DNA of 64,000 nt. Source: Luteolibacter yonseiensis (GTDB lineage Bacteria > Verrucomicrobiota > Verrucomicrobiia > Verrucomicrobiales > Akkermansiaceae). Within the stretch, counting starts at the first letter, position 1. Every line of letters begins with the position of its first letter. The notes under the pieces were generated by a model. It was not told the origin of the DNA, searched no databases, and worked only from the letters and a program-made list of their open reading frames with translations. Below are positions 26,687 to 47,428 of the stretch, piece after piece. Position numbers and translations under genes: made by a program. The stretch is taken from NCBI RefSeq assembly GCF_016595465.1, contig NZ_JAENIK010000013.1, forward strand, positions 186,001 to 250,000. Direction: 5' to 3'.

Positions 26687-27211
26687 TCAGTGATTCTGCA
26701 ACACGCCGATGGCACCAAAAAAGATGACGAACAGCAACCACAGCAAGGCAGGGACCAGCGCCGAAACGAAAGACACCCAGCACCAGGTCTTCGCGGATGC
26801 GGAAGCCGCCGACGCCCCCGCCACATCCCCCGCAGCACGCAGGCCGTCCACCTTCGCCGCATAGACGATGGCGACGATGCCGAAGGGCAGACAGCAGAAC
26901 AATGTCACCACGATGGACTGCCACAGGTAGTTGGGAATCGGAACTCCGATCATGGCCGGAGACGGATAAAATGGTGTGGAATAGGGAGAAGCCCCCGCGT
27001 TTCCCGTTACGGGCACCACCGGTGGAATGGCGGGAGAGGATACCGCACCCGACGCAAACTCCGGAACCCGGGACGCGGGCAGCCAGTCGGCCATCCCCTC
27101 TTTCCAAATCAGATCCGTGGGAAAAACCTCGCCTGAGGACAGCTTCGCACGGAGTTCATCCCCGGTGACGGGACCGAGCTGCGTGTTGTTTTTCGAGTAA
27201 TACCATTCCAT
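26687..27211 (-). CDS. GYF_2 and CD225/dispanin-like membrane protein
   Basis: 174 residues from the ATG at 27209-27211 (MEWYYSKNNTQLGPV). Residues 1-50 are a GYF_2 domain (WYY ... GPVTGDELRAKLSSGEV ... WKEGMADWLPAS). A proline-rich linker leads to a two-helix CD225-like region: NYLWQSIVVTLFCCLPFGIV, then AIVYAAKVDGLRAAGD and a final helix. The same topology occurs in interferon-induced transmembrane proteins, but in bacteria these are small uncharacterised membrane proteins. It belongs to a four-gene run (28179 to 26275) of GYF-type and DUF2752 genes separated by 1-20 bases. Confidence 0.8.
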   Translation of the reverse strand: MEWYYSKNNTQLGPVTGDELRAKLSSGEVFPTDLIWKEGMADWLPASRVPEFASGAVSSPAIPPVVPVTGNAGASPYSTPFYPSPAMIGVPIPNYLWQSIVVTLFCCLPFGIVAIVYAAKVDGLRAAGDVAGASAASASAKTWCWVSFVSALVPALLWLLFVIFFGAIGVLQNH

Positions 27212-27230
27212 GGGCGGGGTGTGTAACAAA

Positions 27231-27695
27231 TCACGGGAAATGAGCGAGGGCGAAAACGATCTGGAGAATGAACCCGAGCATCGTCAGCAGTCCCAGATAA
27301 CCGCAGATCAAACCGGTGAGAGCCATCCCCCGTCCGACGATCATGTTCCGGGAATTGTTGATCTGGTGCATCGCCATATGCCCGCAGACGACGGCGGGGA
27401 TTCCCAGAATTCCCAGGAACATGCATGACAGCACCAGGCCGAGGATGCCGCAGACCATGCTCGCGATCGCCAGGCCGGAGGTCGTCGCGGGTCGCAGCAG
27501 GTCATAACCGGCGGACGGCGGCAGAACGGCCAACCCGCCCTCAGCGCTCACCTGGCCGAGCGGCAGCCATTGTGCCATTCCCTCCCGCCAGATCAGCGTC
27601 GCCGGTCCGATCCTGCCCGCCGCGATGAGCGAGCCCAGATCCTGCTCGGAGATGGGGCCGTGGCGCTGGCCGTTTTCAGCGTGATACCATTGCAT
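27231..27695 (-). CDS. GYF_2-DUF4190 membrane protein
   Basis: 154 residues. An N-terminal GYF_2 domain (MQWYHAENGQRHGPISEQDL ... IWREGMAQWLPLG) is followed by a linker and a two-helix DUF4190 region (SGLAIASMVCGILGLVLSC ... IPAVVCGHMAMHQINNS). It closely resembles the upstream neighbour at 27715: EQDLGSLIAAGR, VSAEGGL and VLPPS are identical, indicating a tandem duplication. Function is unknown; GYF_2 domains are thought to bind proline-rich partners and DUF4190 forms a membrane hairpin. Confidence 0.8.
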   Translation of the reverse strand: MQWYHAENGQRHGPISEQDLGSLIAAGRIGPATLIWREGMAQWLPLGQVSAEGGLAVLPPSAGYDLLRPATTSGLAIASMVCGILGLVLSCMFLGILGIPAVVCGHMAMHQINNSRNMIVGRGMALTGLICGYLGLLTMLGFILQIVFALAHFP

Positions 27696-27714
27696 GGGCC
27701 TGATCCTTGCCGGA

Positions 27715-28179
27715 TCATGGTTTCTTGGCGATAGCGAAAACGACCACCGCCGCCGTCATCAGACAAAACAGGATCACCACGCACAGGTAACCATACAACA
27801 GTCCGCCGTGCGCCGTGTCCTCCCCGACGATCCTGCCCCGCGAATTACGGATCTGTTGCAGCGCCACATGACCGCAAACGACGGCGGGGATTCCGAGAAA
27901 CAGCATGCAGCTTACCAGGCCGAGTATCCCGAAGACCAGGCTGGCGACCGCCCAGCCGGAGCGTGTGCCGGGACGTAGAAGCTCGTAACCCATCGAAGGC
28001 GGAAGCACTTCCAGGCCACCTTCCGCACTCACCCGTGCCAAGGAACGGCATTCCTCCATGCCCTCGCACCAGATCATGGTCTCCACCCTCACCCGGCCCG
28101 CCGCGATGAGCGAACCCAGGTCCTGTTCGGAAACCGGGCCGAACCTGCGACCGCCTTCTCCGTAATACCATTCCGTCAT
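27715..28179 (-). CDS. GYF_2-DUF4190 membrane protein, tandem paralogue
   Basis: 154 residues. Same order as the downstream paralogue: GYF_2 (MTEWYYGEGGRRFGPVSEQD ... IWCEGMEECRSLA) then DUF4190 (SGWAVASLVFGILGLVSC ... IPAVVCGHVALQQIRNSRG) and a final hydrophobic helix. The GYF core has lost the usual W in the WLPL position (ECRSLA), so partner binding may differ. It is the first gene of the run to 26275, with 19 bases to the next. Confidence 0.78.
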   Translation of the reverse strand: MTEWYYGEGGRRFGPVSEQDLGSLIAAGRVRVETMIWCEGMEECRSLARVSAEGGLEVLPPSMGYELLRPGTRSGWAVASLVFGILGLVSCMLFLGIPAVVCGHVALQQIRNSRGRIVGEDTAHGGLLYGYLCVVILFCLMTAAVVVFAIAKKP

Positions 28180-30191: not shown

Positions 30192-33100
30192 TCACCGGAT
30201 ATCTCCCGAGCCACCGTCTTTTCTCAAGGAAAGAGCGACCCGACGCTCATCGTGGTCGACCTTAATGACGCGGGCTTCGATTTCCTCGCCGACCTTGATG
30301 ATGTCCTTGACCTTCTCCACGTGGTCCTCGCTGAGTTGCGGGTTGTCGATGAGGCCGTCGATGTCACCGTCGAGCGAGACGAACGCACCGCAGGATGCGA
30401 TTTTCACAACCGTGCCCTTGACTAGATCGCCGACCTTGAAGTGGCTGTCGATGAGGCTCCATGGGTCGTATTCGGTTTGCTTGATCCCGAGGGCTACGCG
30501 TTGGTTCGCCTTGTCGATGGCGAGCACGATGGCTTCCACTTCGTCGTTCTTCTTGAAAACTTCAGACGGGTGGTCGATCTTGCGTGTCCAGGACATGTTT
30601 GAGACGTGGATCATGCCGTCGATGCCTTCTTCCAGCTCCACGAATGCGCCATAGCCTGTGAGGTTGCGCACCGAGCCCTTGATTATGGCACCCACCGGAT
30701 AGCGAAGTTCCAGATCATCCCATGGGTTGGGATCCAGTTGGCGTACGCTGAGCGAGATTTTCCGTTCCTCGATGTTTATACCGAGAACGACGGCGGAAAT
30801 TTCCTGGCCGATTTTAAGGACATCGGAAGGACGGGTGATGCGCTTGACCCAGCTGAGCTCGGAAACGTGCACGAAGCCTTCGACAACGCGCTCGATCTCG
30901 ATGAACGCGCCGTATGGCAGGAGCTTGGTCACGCGGCCTTTAACATTGTGGCCGATGGGGTATTTGCTTACAATATCCATCCACGGATCGTCAGACATTT
31001 GCTTTAGTCCAACTGAAACCTGCCCTTTCTCGCGATCCAAACTAAGGATCACTACCGTCAACAACTGGTTTTCGTTGATCAATTCGGAAGCGGTTTGGCC
31101 TAGAAGCCATGACATATCTTCCAAACGTAGCAAACACCCCACTCCACACACATCCAAGAAAGCACCGGGCCCCGTGATATTGATAACCCTCCCGGATACC
31201 ACCTGGCCAACACGGAAAGATTCAATTGTTTCTTTCTTCCTGGACAGCTCCTTGAGTTTTTCAACCTTCCCTCTCGAAGCGAAAATCAAGGATCGTTGTT
31301 CGTCGAACCCTGTCAACATCACCTCGATCTCTTCTCCTACCATAATGGGGAATGCTTCATGAGCCATGAACGCGGGAAATCCGATATCAAGCAAATACCC
31401 CTTTTGAGTCTCTGCTACCACTTTGGCTCGGACAACTTCATCATTCGCCCCATATTTTTCAAGTTTCACGATACGCTCTTCCAATCGATTCAGGCGCGCT
31501 TGGTATCCCTTTTTCTCCTTATCTCCCACGGGATTCAAGGAAACCGTGATCTTCCGATGCATTTCATCGAGATGCAGGATATAAAAAATCTGTGGCTTGC
31601 CCGAGCCCCGTAACTCCGGTATCATCGAATGTTCCACCAGAGGATCGCTAGGCAGATATGCCGCACACCCGATGTCCACTCGATAGCCTCCCGGTTCGGA
31701 CCTCCTGATCCATCCGCGCACCCCTTGTCCCGACACATATAGTTTTTCAACCGTGGTCCACATGGATTCGTGCGTAATGATGGTGGCGACGGCATGATCG
31801 ACAGTGACCAAGGTGCGGGGTAGCGATGTCGCCTTCGTCCAGCCCCCCTTCCCTGGCCTGAAGCGGAGCAACTTGTAGCGGCTGTAGTCCTGGGAGGCAA
31901 TCATCACCACCCGTGGACGGGTTTTTGGGACTGGGATTACCAAATCATCCCACTGCGGTGGTTCGCGGAGCAAAATTGCCGACCCATTCCAAGCTACGCC
32001 CACCAATACTTTTTCCTCAAACAGCCAGCCGGCATTTCTCCGACAGGCGATTTCGCCTACCAAGGCTGCCGAAGAACCAAGATTGACAAGGGCGATCGCC
32101 CGCAACAGCTCGGCGGCTTCGCCTTGGCGGACGGGCTCCGGCAGTTCGTCCAAAAATCCGAGTACCCACCGTGCGGCAGATGGTGTCTGCATCCTACCTA
32201 ACAAGGACTTGGCCACTCTCCCCAGTGCAAGATTCAGATTTTGTTCGTCTCCTGCGCTTACAGATAACGAGAGGTATACGATTTGTTCCTCGAAGAGCAC
32301 CCGTGTCCAATCTTCCGAACGGGGGCGCTGCCGATCCAACACCTCTTTCATCTGACCTAGAAGAACTGGATCACTTGCCAGACTTTCTCTAAGTCTGCCG
32401 ACAAGGCCGGACTTCAGGATAACCAGCTTGCTATTGTTACCCGATATCCATGAGGAATTGAGAAGATCGAATTCCAAGCCGGAATCACTCTGCGGGAACA
32501 AAGCAAGCCGGGTTTTTCTCAAGAGAGCATAGTCAATGATCGCACCGAGAGACAAGGCTTTCGCCAGCACGTCTGTAGCATCGCTAAACATCCTGCCGGA
32601 CTGCTGGCCCGGTTTGTACCAATGACAAAAGCGCGCCAAGCGTGTCAGCCTTCGGGGCCAGCGGGAAGGATGAAAAGGCGAGAGGCAAACCGTATCGATT
32701 CCAGAAGCCTTCAGTTCCGTCAGGAGGTTTGTCCAGCGCCTGCGGATTTTCCAACCTTCCAAGGCGTCTTCCCCCAAGCCAAAAGTCGAGATAAAAACCA
32801 CGATCTCACCGGCACCGGTATTCCCGACAAATGATGATGACATGGGAGGCTCCGAAAGAATCTCAACCGCCCTAAGCGCTCCTCCCGCAACGCGATGGAT
32901 GGAATCAAGCAATTGGTCGCTATCGAACGCCAAAGGCCCCTGAAGAAGAGTATGGTCCAGACAGACCCGGATTGCCGTGGCAGTACCTTTTGTAAGGACG
33001 CGGGGAAGGCGACGCACCGGCAAACCACGAACCATTAGAGAAACAAGCGCATCCACATCTGGGGCACCCGGGACCTTCTTTGAAAAGATCCGGGCAATCA

Positions 33101-33551
33101 ACCCACGCAATTGACGTGCCGGCACCAATGCGTCCGGCGTGGGATGGTAACGTATCCCCTCAACGGGAAAGTCCAATTCTTCAGCCTGTGCGACATACTC
33201 CGGGCACTTTCCATGTTCCGCCGGAGGCCTTGATTCGCACAATCCGATCGGCAGGGACTTCTCTTTGACGTCGGGTTTGTGGATACGTGGTTCAGGTTGC
33301 CACGGCCGTGGCTTCGGCAACCGTATTCGTGTAGACAAAACACCACCTCCTTTTTCCACGTCCGATGCCGCCTCCGGCGAGACAGTCGGCTCTGATACAC
33401 CGGCAAATCCAACAGGTTCGGGCCGGGCGTCTCCGAGGAAATCACCTCTCAACCCAAACAATCGGGAAATTCGATCATAGTCCTTGGTGTCGGGCTGTAA
33501 GACGCCAAAAACCATAGCAAGATCCGAAAGGCCGACAGGTAGGTCACGCAT
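30192..33551 (-). CDS. vWA-like module fused to six S1-like repeats, MoxR-TIR operon protein
   Basis: 1119 residues, last gene of a three-gene operon, 16 bases after the MoxR stop. Residues about 190-345 look like a degenerate vWA fold: TAIRVCLDHTLLQG (MIDAS reduced to Asp199 and Thr201), GEIVVFISTFGLGED and DTVCLSPFHPSRWP. Residues 350-600 are an unassigned helical and beta region. The C-terminus has six S1-like OB repeats: about 610-675, 705-760 (both degenerate), 780-852, 865-938, 952-1024 and 1038-1111. The last four read like ribosomal protein S1 (YGAFVELEEGIDGMIHVSNM, KGTVVKIASCGAFVSL). It is too divergent at the N-terminus to be RpsA itself. I infer a conflict-system component whose S1 tail binds RNA or ribosomes. 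The N-terminal two-thirds is AT-richer than the tail. Confidence 0.75.
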   Translation of the reverse strand: MRDLPVGLSDLAMVFGVLQPDTKDYDRISRLFGLRGDFLGDARPEPVGFAGVSEPTVSPEAASDVEKGGGVLSTRIRLPKPRPWQPEPRIHKPDVKEKSLPIGLCESRPPAEHGKCPEYVAQAEELDFPVEGIRYHPTPDALVPARQLRGLIARIFSKKVPGAPDVDALVSLMVRGLPVRRLPRVLTKGTATAIRVCLDHTLLQGPLAFDSDQLLDSIHRVAGGALRAVEILSEPPMSSSFVGNTGAGEIVVFISTFGLGEDALEGWKIRRRWTNLLTELKASGIDTVCLSPFHPSRWPRRLTRLARFCHWYKPGQQSGRMFSDATDVLAKALSLGAIIDYALLRKTRLALFPQSDSGLEFDLLNSSWISGNNSKLVILKSGLVGRLRESLASDPVLLGQMKEVLDRQRPRSEDWTRVLFEEQIVYLSLSVSAGDEQNLNLALGRVAKSLLGRMQTPSAARWVLGFLDELPEPVRQGEAAELLRAIALVNLGSSAALVGEIACRRNAGWLFEEKVLVGVAWNGSAILLREPPQWDDLVIPVPKTRPRVVMIASQDYSRYKLLRFRPGKGGWTKATSLPRTLVTVDHAVATIITHESMWTTVEKLYVSGQGVRGWIRRSEPGGYRVDIGCAAYLPSDPLVEHSMIPELRGSGKPQIFYILHLDEMHRKITVSLNPVGDKEKKGYQARLNRLEERIVKLEKYGANDEVVRAKVVAETQKGYLLDIGFPAFMAHEAFPIMVGEEIEVMLTGFDEQRSLIFASRGKVEKLKELSRKKETIESFRVGQVVSGRVINITGPGAFLDVCGVGCLLRLEDMSWLLGQTASELINENQLLTVVILSLDREKGQVSVGLKQMSDDPWMDIVSKYPIGHNVKGRVTKLLPYGAFIEIERVVEGFVHVSELSWVKRITRPSDVLKIGQEISAVVLGINIEERKISLSVRQLDPNPWDDLELRYPVGAIIKGSVRNLTGYGAFVELEEGIDGMIHVSNMSWTRKIDHPSEVFKKNDEVEAIVLAIDKANQRVALGIKQTEYDPWSLIDSHFKVGDLVKGTVVKIASCGAFVSLDGDIDGLIDNPQLSEDHVEKVKDIIKVGEEIEARVIKVDHDERRVALSLRKDGGSGDIR

Positions 33552-33567
33552 GGCAAACGCTTCCGCA

Positions 33568-34614
33568 TTATTGCGAATTGTAAGAATTGTGCCACGAGGT
33601 GTGAAGAATGATTTCCCTCCATCGGCTCTGATCCCCGGTGCCCAACGCGGCGACGGCCTTGATGCTGTCGATGAACTCGGCGGGGCTCACCACAGCCGCG
33701 CCGCGGGTTCTGCGAAGTATGTCAAGTATCAGCCGCCATTCCGAAACCACTTGTTCATCGCTTTGGCGGAAAGTCGCCTGTGCCAGCTCCATAAGGTCTT
33801 CATCTGAAGGTGGTGAAATCTCACAAACCACGCAGCGACGGACAAAAGCTTCTGGCAACTCCCGCTCTTGATTGGAAGTGATGATCACAAACGGTTCATC
33901 CCCCGCAGAGAGAGAAGAAAATCTGACATTTTCGCCGGATTCTTCGATGGAAAACTGACGGGAACCTAGGGGGACAAGCAGGTTATTGGGAAAATCAATG
34001 TCCGCCTTGTCAATTTCGTCTATGAGTACGATCGCAGGAACGAAGTCCTTCCCGTCGGACACAGGACTCCAACCGGGATCTCGGGCTTGCACAAGCTTAT
34101 CATTCTCTCCCGCGGGAAGGCCTCGCCGCCCCGCAGAAAGCGGGTCCAAAGCCCACCACAACGAACCCGGCTCGATAAAGGGGTAAGGGCTCCGCCATAA
34201 TGGTTCGGCTTCATCCGAAAGCGAGGCCCCGCCCAGATGGGCTTCCCCTAGGCGCCTGATCGCATCGAACCGGTAGAGCAACTCTTTGGCTTCAGTGCGC
34301 GAATGCACTACGAATTCATAGTAGCGGCGCCCCATGATGCGCGCCAGATTGAAGACCATCGAAGACTTCCCGCAACCTGAGGGTCCATAAAGGAGCAGCG
34401 GGCGACCTACAATCAAGGCCACTCGAATCGCAAGTTTGAGGTCTTCACCATAGCGGTAGAAGCGACCGTCGCGCCGGTCTCCCATAGCGCTGGCCTCCTC
34501 TGGATCTCGAAAGTCAGCCACGGATGTTCCCGGTGATTCGATGAGCGAGTGAAACAGAGAGGATAAAAATGGAGTCATGACAGAAGGAAAATCTATTGGA
34601 TGATTGAGTGACAT
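33568..34614 (-). CDS. MoxR-like AAA+ ATPase
   Basis: 348 residues, second gene of the TIR operon, 9 bases after the TIR stop. Walker A is LLLYGPSGCGKSSM (Gly77-Ser85), Walker B is IVLIDEIDKAD (Asp199-Glu200), sensor 1 is FVIITSNQERELP and the arginine region is EAFVRRCVV. This is the MoxR/RavA-type layout, in which the ATPase remodels a vWA-containing partner; the next gene supplies a vWA-like module. An N-terminal 45 residues precede the core. Similar MoxR plus vWA plus TIR sets are known among NTPase-dependent conflict systems. Confidence 0.9.
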   Translation of the reverse strand: MSLNHPIDFPSVMTPFLSSLFHSLIESPGTSVADFRDPEEASAMGDRRDGRFYRYGEDLKLAIRVALIVGRPLLLYGPSGCGKSSMVFNLARIMGRRYYEFVVHSRTEAKELLYRFDAIRRLGEAHLGGASLSDEAEPLWRSPYPFIEPGSLWWALDPLSAGRRGLPAGENDKLVQARDPGWSPVSDGKDFVPAIVLIDEIDKADIDFPNNLLVPLGSRQFSIEESGENVRFSSLSAGDEPFVIITSNQERELPEAFVRRCVVCEISPPSDEDLMELAQATFRQSDEQVVSEWRLILDILRRTRGAAVVSPAEFIDSIKAVAALGTGDQSRWREIILHTSWHNSYNSQ

Positions 34615-34623
34615 GAGCGGAAA

Positions 34624-35868
34624 TCATGATTCGATAAAACTTTGTTTCGCATCAAGGTAGTCGAAGTAAGCCTCATCCTCATCGTCCGCAGCGTCACCGT
34701 AGGGCTTGAAACAGTCATAGCCAAGTCCTGAAGCCGACAATTCATCAAAGTCCGGAGTAGAGACAAGGATTTTTAAAGCCGGGAATGTATTCTGGATTGT
34801 CCTTACCAGTTGATAATCCATACCCGCCCGATGATCGAGTTTCAATATCACCGGAAACCTTTTGCCCATCGCGTAGCGGTGCAGCAAATCATTCAAACCA
34901 GCTCTCGCTCCGGCAATCGAAGTATTTTGAAACATGCGCGCCAAAGTTCCCGCGATCTGCTCCAGAATCTCCTCCACTGGATCGGACGTCTTGACATGGA
35001 CGGATGGCCAGTTTCGCCCCTGATGGGATGCCTTGAGAAGCATCTTGGCCGGAGTGAAATCCGGATGCATGCATTCCACCGCCGCTGCCTTGGGCCGATC
35101 GGCTTGCAGCAGATTTTCGCGCAATCGACTTGCCTCCGGCGACCTAATCCATTTTGTCGCAAGCAGCTCTACAAGAGACTCCATTACCCGGTCATTCTCA
35201 GCGAACGGAAGCAGACTACTTACCGCAAGTGGACCGATCCGATAGAGACAGTGCGCCAGTCCGCGCCGGGTAGTCGGTACGAGCTGAATTATTTCAGGAT
35301 GATTTGCGGCCAGAATCCGGCCAGCGCTTTTAACTCTCCTCTCGTCGAATGAGAGGAGATTAGAAATCTGATTCATGATCCACCGCTCCTCAAATGGAGT
35401 TTCATCCAAAGAATCCAAGCGGTCTATGACGCGGCCTACCAATTCCGACATCGAAACCTGTTGACGCTGTGCCTCCATATCAAGGCAGTGGTGATCCCGG
35501 ATGGAACGAATGTCCTCGGGGAGCAAATCGGCTGCTGGCATTCGTGCCCCATCATGGAGTACCGGAATGATCGATTTAGCACCGGCAATCGCCAAAGTGA
35601 GTTCCCTTCTTACGTAATCTCCGGACCTCTGCAAGCGAGGCACGCCGTCGATTACCTCATTCCAGCGCGGCCCGATCAAGCAGATGAACACTGGAGACAC
35701 ATTCACCGCCTTTTCAAGCACCGCAGAAAAAACCTCTCCAGGTTCGATTTGGGATCTGTCGAGGAAAATATCATCGCGCTCCAGTTCCCTCTCCAATTCC
35801 GAGGCCAACCATGCGGCAGTGGTATTGCCGTCATTTCGCCGATAACTGATAAAGACCCTGTAGCTCAT
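34624..35868 (-). CDS. TIR-domain protein, first gene of the MoxR-S1 operon
   Basis: 414 residues from the ATG at 35866-35868 (MSYRVFISYRRND); an ATG five codons upstream (35883) is possible. Residues 1-145 are a TIR domain: RVFISYRRNDG, DDIFLDRSQIEPGEVF (BB-loop region), VFICLIGPRW, and GDYVRRELTLAIAG with Glu89 in the place of the NADase catalytic Glu. The rest (150-414) has a helical middle part with YRIGPLAVSSLLPFA and an alpha/beta end (FPVILKLDHRAGMD), which I do not recognise. TIR domains in prokaryotic defence cleave NAD+ or make signalling nucleotides; here activity is inferred from the retained Glu. Confidence 0.82.
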   Translation of the reverse strand: MSYRVFISYRRNDGNTTAAWLASELERELERDDIFLDRSQIEPGEVFSAVLEKAVNVSPVFICLIGPRWNEVIDGVPRLQRSGDYVRRELTLAIAGAKSIIPVLHDGARMPAADLLPEDIRSIRDHHCLDMEAQRQQVSMSELVGRVIDRLDSLDETPFEERWIMNQISNLLSFDERRVKSAGRILAANHPEIIQLVPTTRRGLAHCLYRIGPLAVSSLLPFAENDRVMESLVELLATKWIRSPEASRLRENLLQADRPKAAAVECMHPDFTPAKMLLKASHQGRNWPSVHVKTSDPVEEILEQIAGTLARMFQNTSIAGARAGLNDLLHRYAMGKRFPVILKLDHRAGMDYQLVRTIQNTFPALKILVSTPDFDELSASGLGYDCFKPYGDAADDEDEAYFDYLDAKQSFIES

Positions 35869-35883
35869 CAAAAGTGACGCCAT

Positions 35884-46220: not shown

Positions 46221-47428
46221 TCAGCGCTCCGGCATCAGTTCCTCATTCGGATCCGGCCAGGCGGGGTCGTGGTTCTTCGCGTAGTTGAAGAGATGAGAAT
46301 GCGGATGCTTTTTACCCATACCCGGGAGATACCTCAGATCGAAATCTATCTCTGATCGATTTATGGTAACTCGCGATACGAGATTCTCCACCAACTCCCG
46401 CTGCTTAAGATGGGACATCTTGAACCATTGGCTCACCAATTTCGCGCCATCCTTCGCTAGGGATTGAGAAGAAACCTGTTCCGCGTCCAATACCATCAGC
46501 ATCTCTTTGAGATGCTCCGTCTCCCTGGCGATCTCGATCTTCCGCGCCTCCAAAGGAACCGACTGCCGCTTGAACTCGTCAAATCCCAACGCCCCTCCCT
46601 GATAGAGATCCACCAGGGATTCCAAGCGCTTGCTGACTTTCTCCCCGTCCTTGGCCAGCGACTGCAACAGGCTCCGCTTCTCGCCAGCCGCCTCCGAAGC
46701 CTTGAGCATGTATTCCGCAAGGCGGCGGTCATCGAGCAGGAAGTCGGACATCTGCTCGATGAAGAGCGCCTCCAGGTCGTCCTTCGGGATCTTGTTGCTG
46801 CACTTGTAGCAACGGTACTTCGGAGTTCCGGTCTGGGGATACATCTTCACGTCATTCCCGCACGCCCCGCAGAACGCGAGCCCGGAAAACAAGTATTTCG
46901 GATTGCGGCCCTTTTGCATGTATCGGCCATGCCCTTCCCTCCCCTCGTTGAGAATGCGGTTGCACTCGTTCCAATCCTCCTCGCTGACGATTGGCTCGAC
47001 AGGGACATTGACCCATTCCTCCTTCGGCTTGAACTCCCACTTGCCGTCACCTAGGTTCCGGGTGAAATTGGCCAAGCGATTACCCTTCACCGTCGGATCC
47101 TGGAGCAGCTTGCCTACCGTTGAATACGACCACAGGTTGCCGGCACGCGTCCGGTAGCCCCTCTCGTTGAGAATGCGAGCGACGGTCAGCTTGCGGCGGT
47201 GCTCAAGGAAGAGGGACACCATCAATTTGCGGACGGCAGCCTCCTCCGGCTGCGGCACCATCTTGCTGTCGACCCAGTGATAACCGTAGACGGGCTTTCC
47301 GCCGGTGGACCTCCCCATCTTGGCACGGACAGGCACCGAAGCAGCAACTCGCGAGGAGATCTCCTCGCGCTCCCACTGCGCCATCGCCGCGATCATGGTA
47401 AAAAACACCCTGCCTGCGGGGCTCGACG
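46221..47428 (-). pseudogene. large serine recombinase, N-terminus deleted by IS66
   Basis: The frame begins in family-like sequence only at SSPAGRVFFTMIAAMAQWER, which is the final part (helix E) of the resolvase catalytic domain; the catalytic Ser and first about 100 residues are gone. The rest is intact: the Recombinase domain (GGKPVYGYHWVD, LNERGYRTRAGNLWSYSTVG), a zinc ribbon (CGACGNDVKM ... YRCYKCSN), and a coiled coil (about 46450-46720). The upstream join coincides with an IS66 end at 47429. Large serine recombinases integrate or excise phages and elements, so this marks a former mobile element. It cannot be active. Start codons in the upstream junk are not meaningful. Confidence 0.8.

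What the first reader, a model, noticed from the sequence alone, without database searches (positions are those of the whole stretch)
30192..35883. TIR-MoxR-vWA/S1 operon, a candidate new conflict system
Three minus-strand genes with 9- and 16-base gaps encode a TIR protein keeping the NADase-type Glu, a MoxR AAA+ ATPase, and a degenerate vWA-like protein that ends in six S1-like repeats. TIR, MoxR and vWA partners belong to known NTPase-dependent conflict systems (established), but a ribosomal-S1-type tail as the terminal module is one I do not recall. It could let the complex sense or attack ribosomes or mRNA. Codon use is more AT-rich than neighbours, as expected for a transferred cassette.
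Basis: partly seen in the sequence, partly recalled or inferred. Interest (0 to 1): 0.92.

Follow-up and report, generated by a model that had tools for sequence, protein, structure and literature searches.

The report
Immune operon carrying copied ribosomal protein
A three-gene bacterial defence operon of a known general type carries, where its relatives carry a variable sensor or effector part, a copy of ribosomal protein S1 whose second half comes from the same bacterial genus and probably from this organism's own S1 gene, which suggests, but does not prove, that S1 is used as bait for phage proteins.

Summary
In detail: TIR (34624-35883), MoxR AAA+ (33568-34614) and a 1119-aa degenerate-vWA protein with S1 repeats (30192-33551), minus strand, gaps 9 and 16. 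It is not a new system. TIR-MoxR-[vWA + helical linker]-X recurs across phyla. Of 22 loci I assembled, X is an FGE-sulfatase/C-type-lectin domain in 14, TPR/CHAT/NB-ARC in 3, T6SS sheath VipA-VipB in 1, without a Pfam hit in 2, unexamined in 1, S1 only here. [quoted passage not shown] What I did not find in print is the origin of this tail. It is a mosaic: repeats 1-3 are distant from every rpsA compared; from codon ~850-864 repeats 4-6 are 88% identical (protein and DNA) to the resident rpsA elsewhere in the genome, group with it in DNA trees (bootstrap 97 and 99), and have since been under purifying selection (pN/pS 0.24). Best reading: S1 is an integrated decoy or bait coupled through MoxR-vWA to a TIR NADase, kept similar to the host's S1 by recombination. 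Rival: an RNA-binding module. Bait mechanism ~0.4; family placement ~0.8.

The parts
34624..35883 (-). TIR gene, 419 aa; TIR domain residues 10-137, about 280-residue C-terminal region aligned with relatives (third component, TERNS3-like position)
   Evidence: E94 nearly invariant
33568..34614 (-). MoxR-type AAA+ ATPase, 348 aa, 9-base gap after the TIR gene
30192..33551 (-). 1119-aa protein: degenerate vWA + helical linker + S1 array, 16-base gap after MoxR
32604..33143 (-). degenerate vWA-like domain (residues 137-316), MIDAS-type motif lost (DHTLL where two relatives have DISAS and DYSPS)
32040..32588 (-). mostly helical linker region (residues 322-504), vWA-L-like; begins a separate gene in Streptomyces and Methylibium relatives
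31005..31769 (-). S1 repeats 1-3 (residues 595-849): two degenerate and one clear; not closer to the genus's rpsA than to that of Pseudomonas or Neochlamydia; composition like the cassette (GC3 0.54)
30960..31004 (-). recombination junction (residues 850-864): DNA identity to the resident rpsA rises from about 0.5 to above 0.9
30219..30965 (-). S1 repeats 4-6 (residues 863-1111), 88% protein and 88% DNA identity to the resident rpsA; R4 and R5 keep the aromatic-GAF and VHVS/IHVS signature, R6 has lost it

Best explanation
This is a MoxR-vWA ternary conflict system of the TERNS3 type. The TIR protein is the NAD-cleaving third component. The MoxR ring and the degenerate vWA with its helical linker form the ATP-driven switch. 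The variable C-terminal slot holds a copy of ribosomal protein S1 that acts as an integrated decoy: a phage protein that binds, modifies or recruits S1 in the cell also engages this copy, MoxR-vWA remodels the complex, and the TIR domain is switched on to deplete NAD+ or make an ADP-ribose signal. The incoming cassette carried an older S1-like array whose repeats 4-6 were replaced, in register, by those of a rpsA of the host's genus (most likely the host's own) and then kept by selection, so the bait resembles the host's real S1. Shown: gene order, domains, mosaic tail, purifying selection, conservation of the core. Inferred: all of the sensing and activation steps, and that the cassette arrived from elsewhere.
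For: Core operon conserved with the C-terminal slot exchanged: S1, FGE-sulfatase, TPR/CHAT, NB-ARC, VipA-VipB. TIR gene upstream in 15 of the 22 loci. At two loci with an FGE domain in the slot a reverse transcriptase lies just downstream, matching published DGR-diversified 'putative antigen sensors' (PMC10907252, passages). Tail repeats 4-6: 88% protein and DNA identity to the resident rpsA with a sharp break; nearest of 42 distinct rpsA sequences is the resident one (88.2%, next 85.5%), UFBoot 99. Tail branch: 44 synonymous and 36 non-synonymous changes, pN/pS 0.24; 36 or fewer in 0 of 2000 neutral simulations under each of three mutation models. S1 domains are known phage targets in T4: RegB is stimulated by S1 (D4-D5 minimal), RIII binds mainly D5 (PMC9409239, abstract and sections 3 and 6); ModB modifies S1 most strongly at D2 and D6 (PMC10468400, passages). 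Decoy effectors have been proposed for MoxR-vWA systems (PMC7159879, part 1 of section 35).
Against: No functional data exist. The S1 fusion was found in one genome only (0 of 80 MoxR loci; in 73 genus genomes no other listed R4-R6 match lies in a frame over 895 aa), so no recurrence. The authors who described TERNS3 read its S1 domains as nucleic-acid recognition. R4 and R5 keep the RNA-contact signature. Under an extreme C>T/G>A-only mutation model 129 of 2000 neutral runs reach the observed count. Repeat 6 alone has 10 S and 14 N changes and lost its signature, so constraint is uneven. Sites where the tail shares a minority base with exactly one rpsA show no excess for the resident gene (2, as for L049 and L010), so 'own lineage' rests on the trees; 'same genus' is firm.
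Confidence: 0.4

Rival explanations
1. The S1 array is an RNA- or ribosome-engaging module: it brings the MoxR-vWA-TIR complex to mRNA or to translating ribosomes, to sense stalled or foreign transcripts or to act there. The host rpsA was merely a handy source of good OB folds.
For: S1 repeats are RNA-binding domains; R4 and R5 keep the aromatic-GAF/HVS signature; TERNS3 systems with OST-HTH plus multiple S1 domains, and other ternary systems with S1-like, KH and cold-shock domains, are published and read as nucleic-acid recognition.
Against: No OST-HTH among the Pfam hits of this protein at E up to 1; R3 and R6 lost the RNA-contact signature; repeats 1-2, by order the ribosome-anchoring half of S1, are degenerate (D1-D2 role from PMC9409239 section 3), though by sequence repeat 1 resembles D2 best, so the assignment is uncertain. 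It does not explain why the copy should be the host's own.
Confidence: 0.33
2. The fusion is a recombination accident between an S1-containing cassette and rpsA, now neutral or decaying, without a role of its own.
For: Single genome; R6 carries radical changes at conserved positions (F1054C, H1069D, I1070N, S1071P).
Against: Open 1119-aa frame, no stop, purifying selection overall.
Confidence: 0.12
3. The S1 array titrates a phage S1 partner passively (a sponge), without triggering the TIR domain, or it is the released effector that competes with S1 on ribosomes.
For: Kaur et al. propose both decoy and release-type effectors for these systems.
Against: The TIR protein is the evident enzymatic output; no peptidase family is among the hits of the three genes.
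Confidence: 0.15

Closest known systems
TERNS3 MoxR-vWA ternary conflict systems (eLife 2021, PMC8195603; section 6 and passages seen)
   Same: 5' gene with TIR fused to the third component, then MoxR, vWA, helical linker with a C-terminal variable module; multiple S1 domains reported in that slot; linker and effector on a separate gene, as in the Streptomyces relatives.
   Different: vWA and linker are fused into one gene here; no OST-HTH hit; S1 array is rpsA-like and partly from the host genus's rpsA. Membership of the TIR protein's C-terminal region in TERNS3 could not be tested with the libraries on hand.
[quoted passage not shown] eLife 2020, PMC7159879; sections 8, 11, 20, part 1 of 35 and passages seen)
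   Same: MoxR + vWA + third component with TIR; C-terminal variable effector slot with FGS, TPR, caspase-like and S1-like domains.
   Different: No VMAP-C or iSTAND hit in 13 TIR proteins, though presence of such models in this Pfam copy was not checked; MoxR matches only part of bpMoxR.
DGR-diversified MoxR-associated putative antigen sensors (PMC10907252, passages seen)
   Same: MoxR next to a gene with an uncharacterised N-terminal extension and a C-terminal C-type-lectin sensor; two FGE-type relatives here have a reverse transcriptase just downstream.
   Different: Slot holds S1; no reverse transcriptase seen beside this operon (by eye).
Ribosomal protein S1 (rpsA)
   Same: R3-R6 in rpsA order, R4-R6 88% identical to the resident copy.
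   Different: Fused to a vWA-like domain; the genome keeps a separate full rpsA (L002 1057-2763).
Plant NLR integrated decoys (recalled)
   Same: Copy of a host target built into an immune receptor.
   Different: No shared ancestry claimed; analogy only.

Membership tests
TERNS3 MoxR-vWA ternary system | MoxR-clade AAA+ ATPase | tested here: met
   AAA_5 E 1.1e-13 and bpMoxR 33.1 bits (cut-off 27)
TERNS3 MoxR-vWA ternary system | vWA domain partner | tested here: inconclusive
   No Pfam hit above cut-off here; VWA_CoxE weak in 3 of 17 relatives; best VIA match a vWA (Z 9.6), best Foldseek match NorQD at E 0.016 with low TM-scores; DxSxS-like motif in two relatives
TERNS3 MoxR-vWA ternary system | helical linker (vWA-L) carrying a C-terminal variable module | tested here: inconclusive
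   AF2 helices in residues 322-504, block pLDDT 45-82; linker + module is a separate gene in L041, L042, L062; no vWA-L profile on hand
TERNS3 MoxR-vWA ternary system | 5' gene with the TERNS3 alpha+beta domain | not testable with these tools
   13 of 13 TIR proteins match TIR_2; the other Pfam hits are TIR-like families or single-member extras; no TERNS3 model seen
TERNS3 MoxR-vWA ternary system | TIR domain fused to the third component | tested here: met
   TIR_2 E 2.6e-13 plus a C-terminal region aligned with relatives; that this region is the third component is inferred from its position
TERNS3 subset with OST-HTH + S1 effector | multiple S1 domains in the C-terminal slot | tested here: met
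   Pfam S1 E 3.4e-65, four stretches
TERNS3 subset with OST-HTH + S1 effector | OST-HTH domain | tested here: not met
   No OST-HTH among Pfam hits at E up to 1
VMAP ternary system | VMAP-C domain | tested here: inconclusive
   No such hit in 13 TIR proteins, but presence of a VMAP-C model in this Pfam copy was not checked
Thoeris | ThsB/ThcB-type TIR at curated cut-off | tested here: not met
   ThcB4 37.9 bits against cut-off 220; PADLOC ThsB E 2.1e-5 only
30S ribosomal protein S1 (rpsA) | stand-alone S1 protein, sole rpsA of the genome | tested here: not met
   Fused after a ~590-aa N-terminal region; separate rpsA at G000:C9

The most novel reading that the evidence does not exclude
A bacterial immune receptor uses a copy of the host's own ribosomal protein S1 as an integrated decoy, and keeps that decoy matched to its host by recombination with the resident rpsA: a bacterial counterpart of plant integrated decoys, in which acquisition of the cassette is followed by re-tailoring of the bait to the new host. 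The VipA-VipB fusion in the same slot of a Methylibium relative would be a second machine-component bait.
Probability: 0.33. Interest if true: 0.85.

Novelty: new variant of a known kind. Interest (0 to 1): 0.56.

Why it matters
What the exchangeable C-terminal slot of MoxR-vWA conflict systems does (sensor, effector or decoy) is open. A slot filled with a piece of the host genus's S1, under measurable selection, gives a concrete candidate ligand set (phage proteins that act on S1) and so makes the question directly testable. If bait, it would show that bacteria build host-protein decoys into multi-component immune receptors and update them by recombination.

Tried and rejected
Rejected: the system is new (TERNS3 layout in print); it is Thoeris (scores far below cut-off); it is the rpsA gene itself; the S1 tail was inherited whole from one donor (break at codons ~850-864 and different affinities of R1-R3 and R4-R6). 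VipA-VipB of Methylibium as a copy of its own T6SS: not supported, no other VipA/B match in that genome, whose completeness is not told.

Led nowhere: close relatives of the N-terminal region in genome contigs and phages and of residues 1-849 in viral contigs (none; these searches reach close relatives only); the five MoxR loci from viral contigs gave no N-terminal-domain hit; N-terminal domain profile against PDB sequences (none). A clean empty site was not obtained: FabV has a match in 33 of 41 genus genomes, but the permease that follows the operon gave no match in the 8 FabV regions inspected (13-16 kb each), so insertion borders are unknown. Ten short hits of the N-terminal region (E 8e-4 to 9e-3) were not followed, and L046 (a further MoxR region of G433) was fetched but not examined.

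Paper searches. No paper describing a host-derived S1 copy in such a system appeared in those listings; subscription papers and preprints are mostly outside that library. PMC12409349 (passages) reviews decoys in phage defence; the passages shown name decoy nucleotides and DNA mimics, not built-in host-protein copies.
Full report
Observation. The three minus-strand genes are present as described: TIR 34624-35883 (419 aa), MoxR 33568-34614 (348 aa), and a 1119-aa protein 30192-33551, with 9- and 16-base gaps. Their GC is 0.52-0.55 against mostly 0.57-0.68 in the listed neighbours. Pfam finds TIR_2 (E 2.6e-13), AAA_5 (1.1e-13) and bpMoxR (3.8e-8), and S1 (3.4e-65, four stretches); no hit covers the first ~590 residues of the large protein. 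The putative catalytic Glu is residue 94 of the ORF and is nearly invariant in an alignment of 13 TIR proteins; SARM1/tir-1 NADases are the solved structures found.

The N-terminal region. It is collinear with the split proteins of Streptomyces (27% over 455 aa, E 2e-21) and with a same-genus protein (27% over 421 aa, E 4e-15). In an alignment of 17 sequences two carry DxSxS (L060 DISAS, L068 DYSPS) where the window protein has DHTLL. Pfam VWA_CoxE is reached weakly by 3 of 17. The AF2 model of residues 1-600 (13-row alignment, mean pLDDT 62, confident about 140-315) has the vWA domain of 1shu as top VIA-align match (Z 9.6; next 8.7, an unrelated HPRT) and NorQD, itself a MoxR-vWA complex, as top Foldseek match (E 0.016, TM 0.16/0.34; no match at E up to 0.001). 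'Degenerate vWA' is therefore likely, not proven. Residues about 322-504 are mainly helical.

The operon family. A MoxR search of plasmids and a search with the N-terminal region found, on two Streptomyces plasmids, the order TIR - MoxR - vWA-like gene - [linker + CHAT, or linker + NB-ARC/TPR]. A MoxR-profile scan of genome contigs returned the best 80 loci, 13 of which encode the N-terminal domain by my HMM, L069 only weakly. Further loci came from genome searches. After merging duplicates (L045 = L070, L084 = L152, from contig lengths) I count 22 loci including the window. The C-terminal module is FGE-sulfatase in 14 (one with NACHT; six by Pfam, eight by my own FGE HMM), CHAT, NB-ARC/TPR or TIR-AAA-TPR in 3, VipA-VipB in 1 (Methylibium L062, E 1.7e-36 and 1.5e-123), without a Pfam hit at E up to 0.001 in 2 (L061, L063), unexamined in 1 (L069), S1 in 1. 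A TIR gene lies upstream in 15 of 22; L063 has one downstream; my HMM found none at L065, L066, L069, L154, L155, L156. This census is a by-product of MoxR-led and profile-led searches and is biased. The systems are rare: N-terminal domain in 4 of 335 genomes of the class and 3 of 300 in the order of Methylibium, centre genomes included; only 5-7 candidates per genome were scored, so these are lower bounds. In the genus, 2 of 73 genomes have the MoxR at E up to 1e-8: the window's and G520, a 12.6-Mb assembly with 6% contamination whose operon has an FGE domain. At two FGE loci a reverse transcriptase lies just downstream (RVT_1), as in published DGR-diversified putative antigen sensors (PMC10907252, passages).

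Comparison with what is known. PMC8195603 (section 6 read) describes TERNS3 systems: 5' third component most often fused to TIR, MoxR, vWA, and a separate gene with the helical vWA-L linker and C-terminal effector; [quoted passage not shown] PMC7159879 (section 11) lists S1-like domains in the sister VMAP class, and a passage in its section 22 reports ribosomal L12/ClpS insertions in another. So both the operon type and S1 in the slot are in print. I place the locus with TERNS3-type systems at about 0.8; the TERNS3 domain itself could not be tested. OST-HTH was not found.

What I did not find in print: the origin of the tail. The genome has a separate rpsA (568 aa, L002 1057-2763). Against it, repeats 1, 2, 3 and 4-6 of the tail are 27, 27, 41 and 88% identical in protein and 39, 40, 50 and 88% in DNA, with the change at codons ~850-864 and again at the end of R6. 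GC3 is 0.57 for the N-terminal region, 0.54 for R1-R3, 0.74 for R4-R6 and 0.83 for rpsA. R1-R3 score alike with rpsA of Pseudomonas, Neochlamydia and the genus/family (75.9-87.0 bits), lower with Parabacteroides (73.2) and Pusillibacter (54.3); single repeats R4, R5, R6 are 78-90% identical to genus/family rpsA and 30-59% to the four other phyla. So, by inference, an older S1-like array had its R4-R6 replaced in register. In one search, 29 rpsA loci were given and 26 gave a frame; 24 distinct full ones plus the tail entered the first tree, which joins tail and resident rpsA with UFBoot 97. In the second tree 53 sequences were gathered, tail included; identical ones were dropped, leaving 42 rpsA and the tail; the value is 99 and DNA identity 88.2% against 85.5% for the next. 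Against this, sites where the tail shares a minority base with exactly one rpsA number 2 for the resident gene, the same as for two others. Same-genus origin is firm; own-lineage origin is probable.

Selection. Polarised with 23 other rpsA sequences, the tail branch has 44 synonymous and 36 non-synonymous changes (pN/pS 0.24), the resident rpsA branch 13 and 3 (0.07), with 4 unassigned. In 2000 neutral simulations of 80 changes per model, none had 36 or fewer non-synonymous under equal, kappa-4 or observed-spectrum mutation; 129 of 2000 did if only C>T and G>A were allowed. By repeat (S, N): end of R3 6, 5; R4 13, 9; R5 15, 8; R6 10, 14. R4 and R5 keep the aromatic-GAF and HVS signature (recalled as S1 RNA contacts), R3 and R6 do not.

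Mechanism. In T4, RegB is stimulated by S1 (minimal D4-D5), RIII binds mainly D5 (PMC9409239: abstract, sections 3 and 6), and ModB modifies S1 most strongly at D2 and D6 (PMC10468400, passages). D1-D2 anchor S1 to the ribosome (PMC9409239 section 3); the repeats in that position here are degenerate, though which S1 domains they derive from is unclear. A receptor with host-like R4-R6 but no good ribosome anchor is what a free bait would look like. An RNA-binding role is nearly as likely and is what earlier authors propose. Why the copy should resemble this host's S1 is the point that favours bait; rarity and lack of recurrence are the points that weaken it. All links to phages of this organism are inference.

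Verdict. Observation confirmed; interpretation as a new system not supported; new variant of a known kind, with an unusual, testable origin of its variable module.

Noticed in passing
L062 11019-13814 (Methylibium sp. NZG): Same TIR-MoxR-vWA operon with T6SS sheath proteins VipA and VipB fused behind the linker; the genome shows no other VipA/B match.
   Followed up: partly
L044 11009-12106 and L045 13072-14085: Reverse transcriptases beside FGE-type members in genomes of the same phylum, probably DGRs; template and variable repeats were not looked for.
   Followed up: partly
L059 10655-16009 (Pirellulaceae): 1785-aa frame with linker, NACHT and FGE-sulfatase domains in one member.
   Followed up: no
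L042 4857-6929 (Streptomyces europaeiscabiei plasmid): TIR protein with an N-terminal match to DpdA (deoxypurine in DNA), E 1.2e-47; perhaps a misplaced start or a fusion.
   Followed up: no
window 46221-47396: Serine-recombinase-type gene (Recombinase and zinc-ribbon domains) in a second lower-GC stretch about 10 kb from the operon.
   Followed up: no
window 26687-28179: Three neighbouring GYF_2-type small genes near FabV (one confirmed by Pfam: GYF_2 and DUF4190); similar genes lie directly beside FabV in 5 of the 8 related regions inspected and about 5 kb away in 1.
   Followed up: partly
L043 5462-6538: MoxR 41-43% identical to the window's, with no vWA-like or TIR gene seen beside it (by eye in the ORF list).
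   Followed up: no
G498 contigs C55 and C97: Two rpsA-like frames (413 and 597 aa) in one genus genome; may be contamination or a duplication.
   Followed up: no
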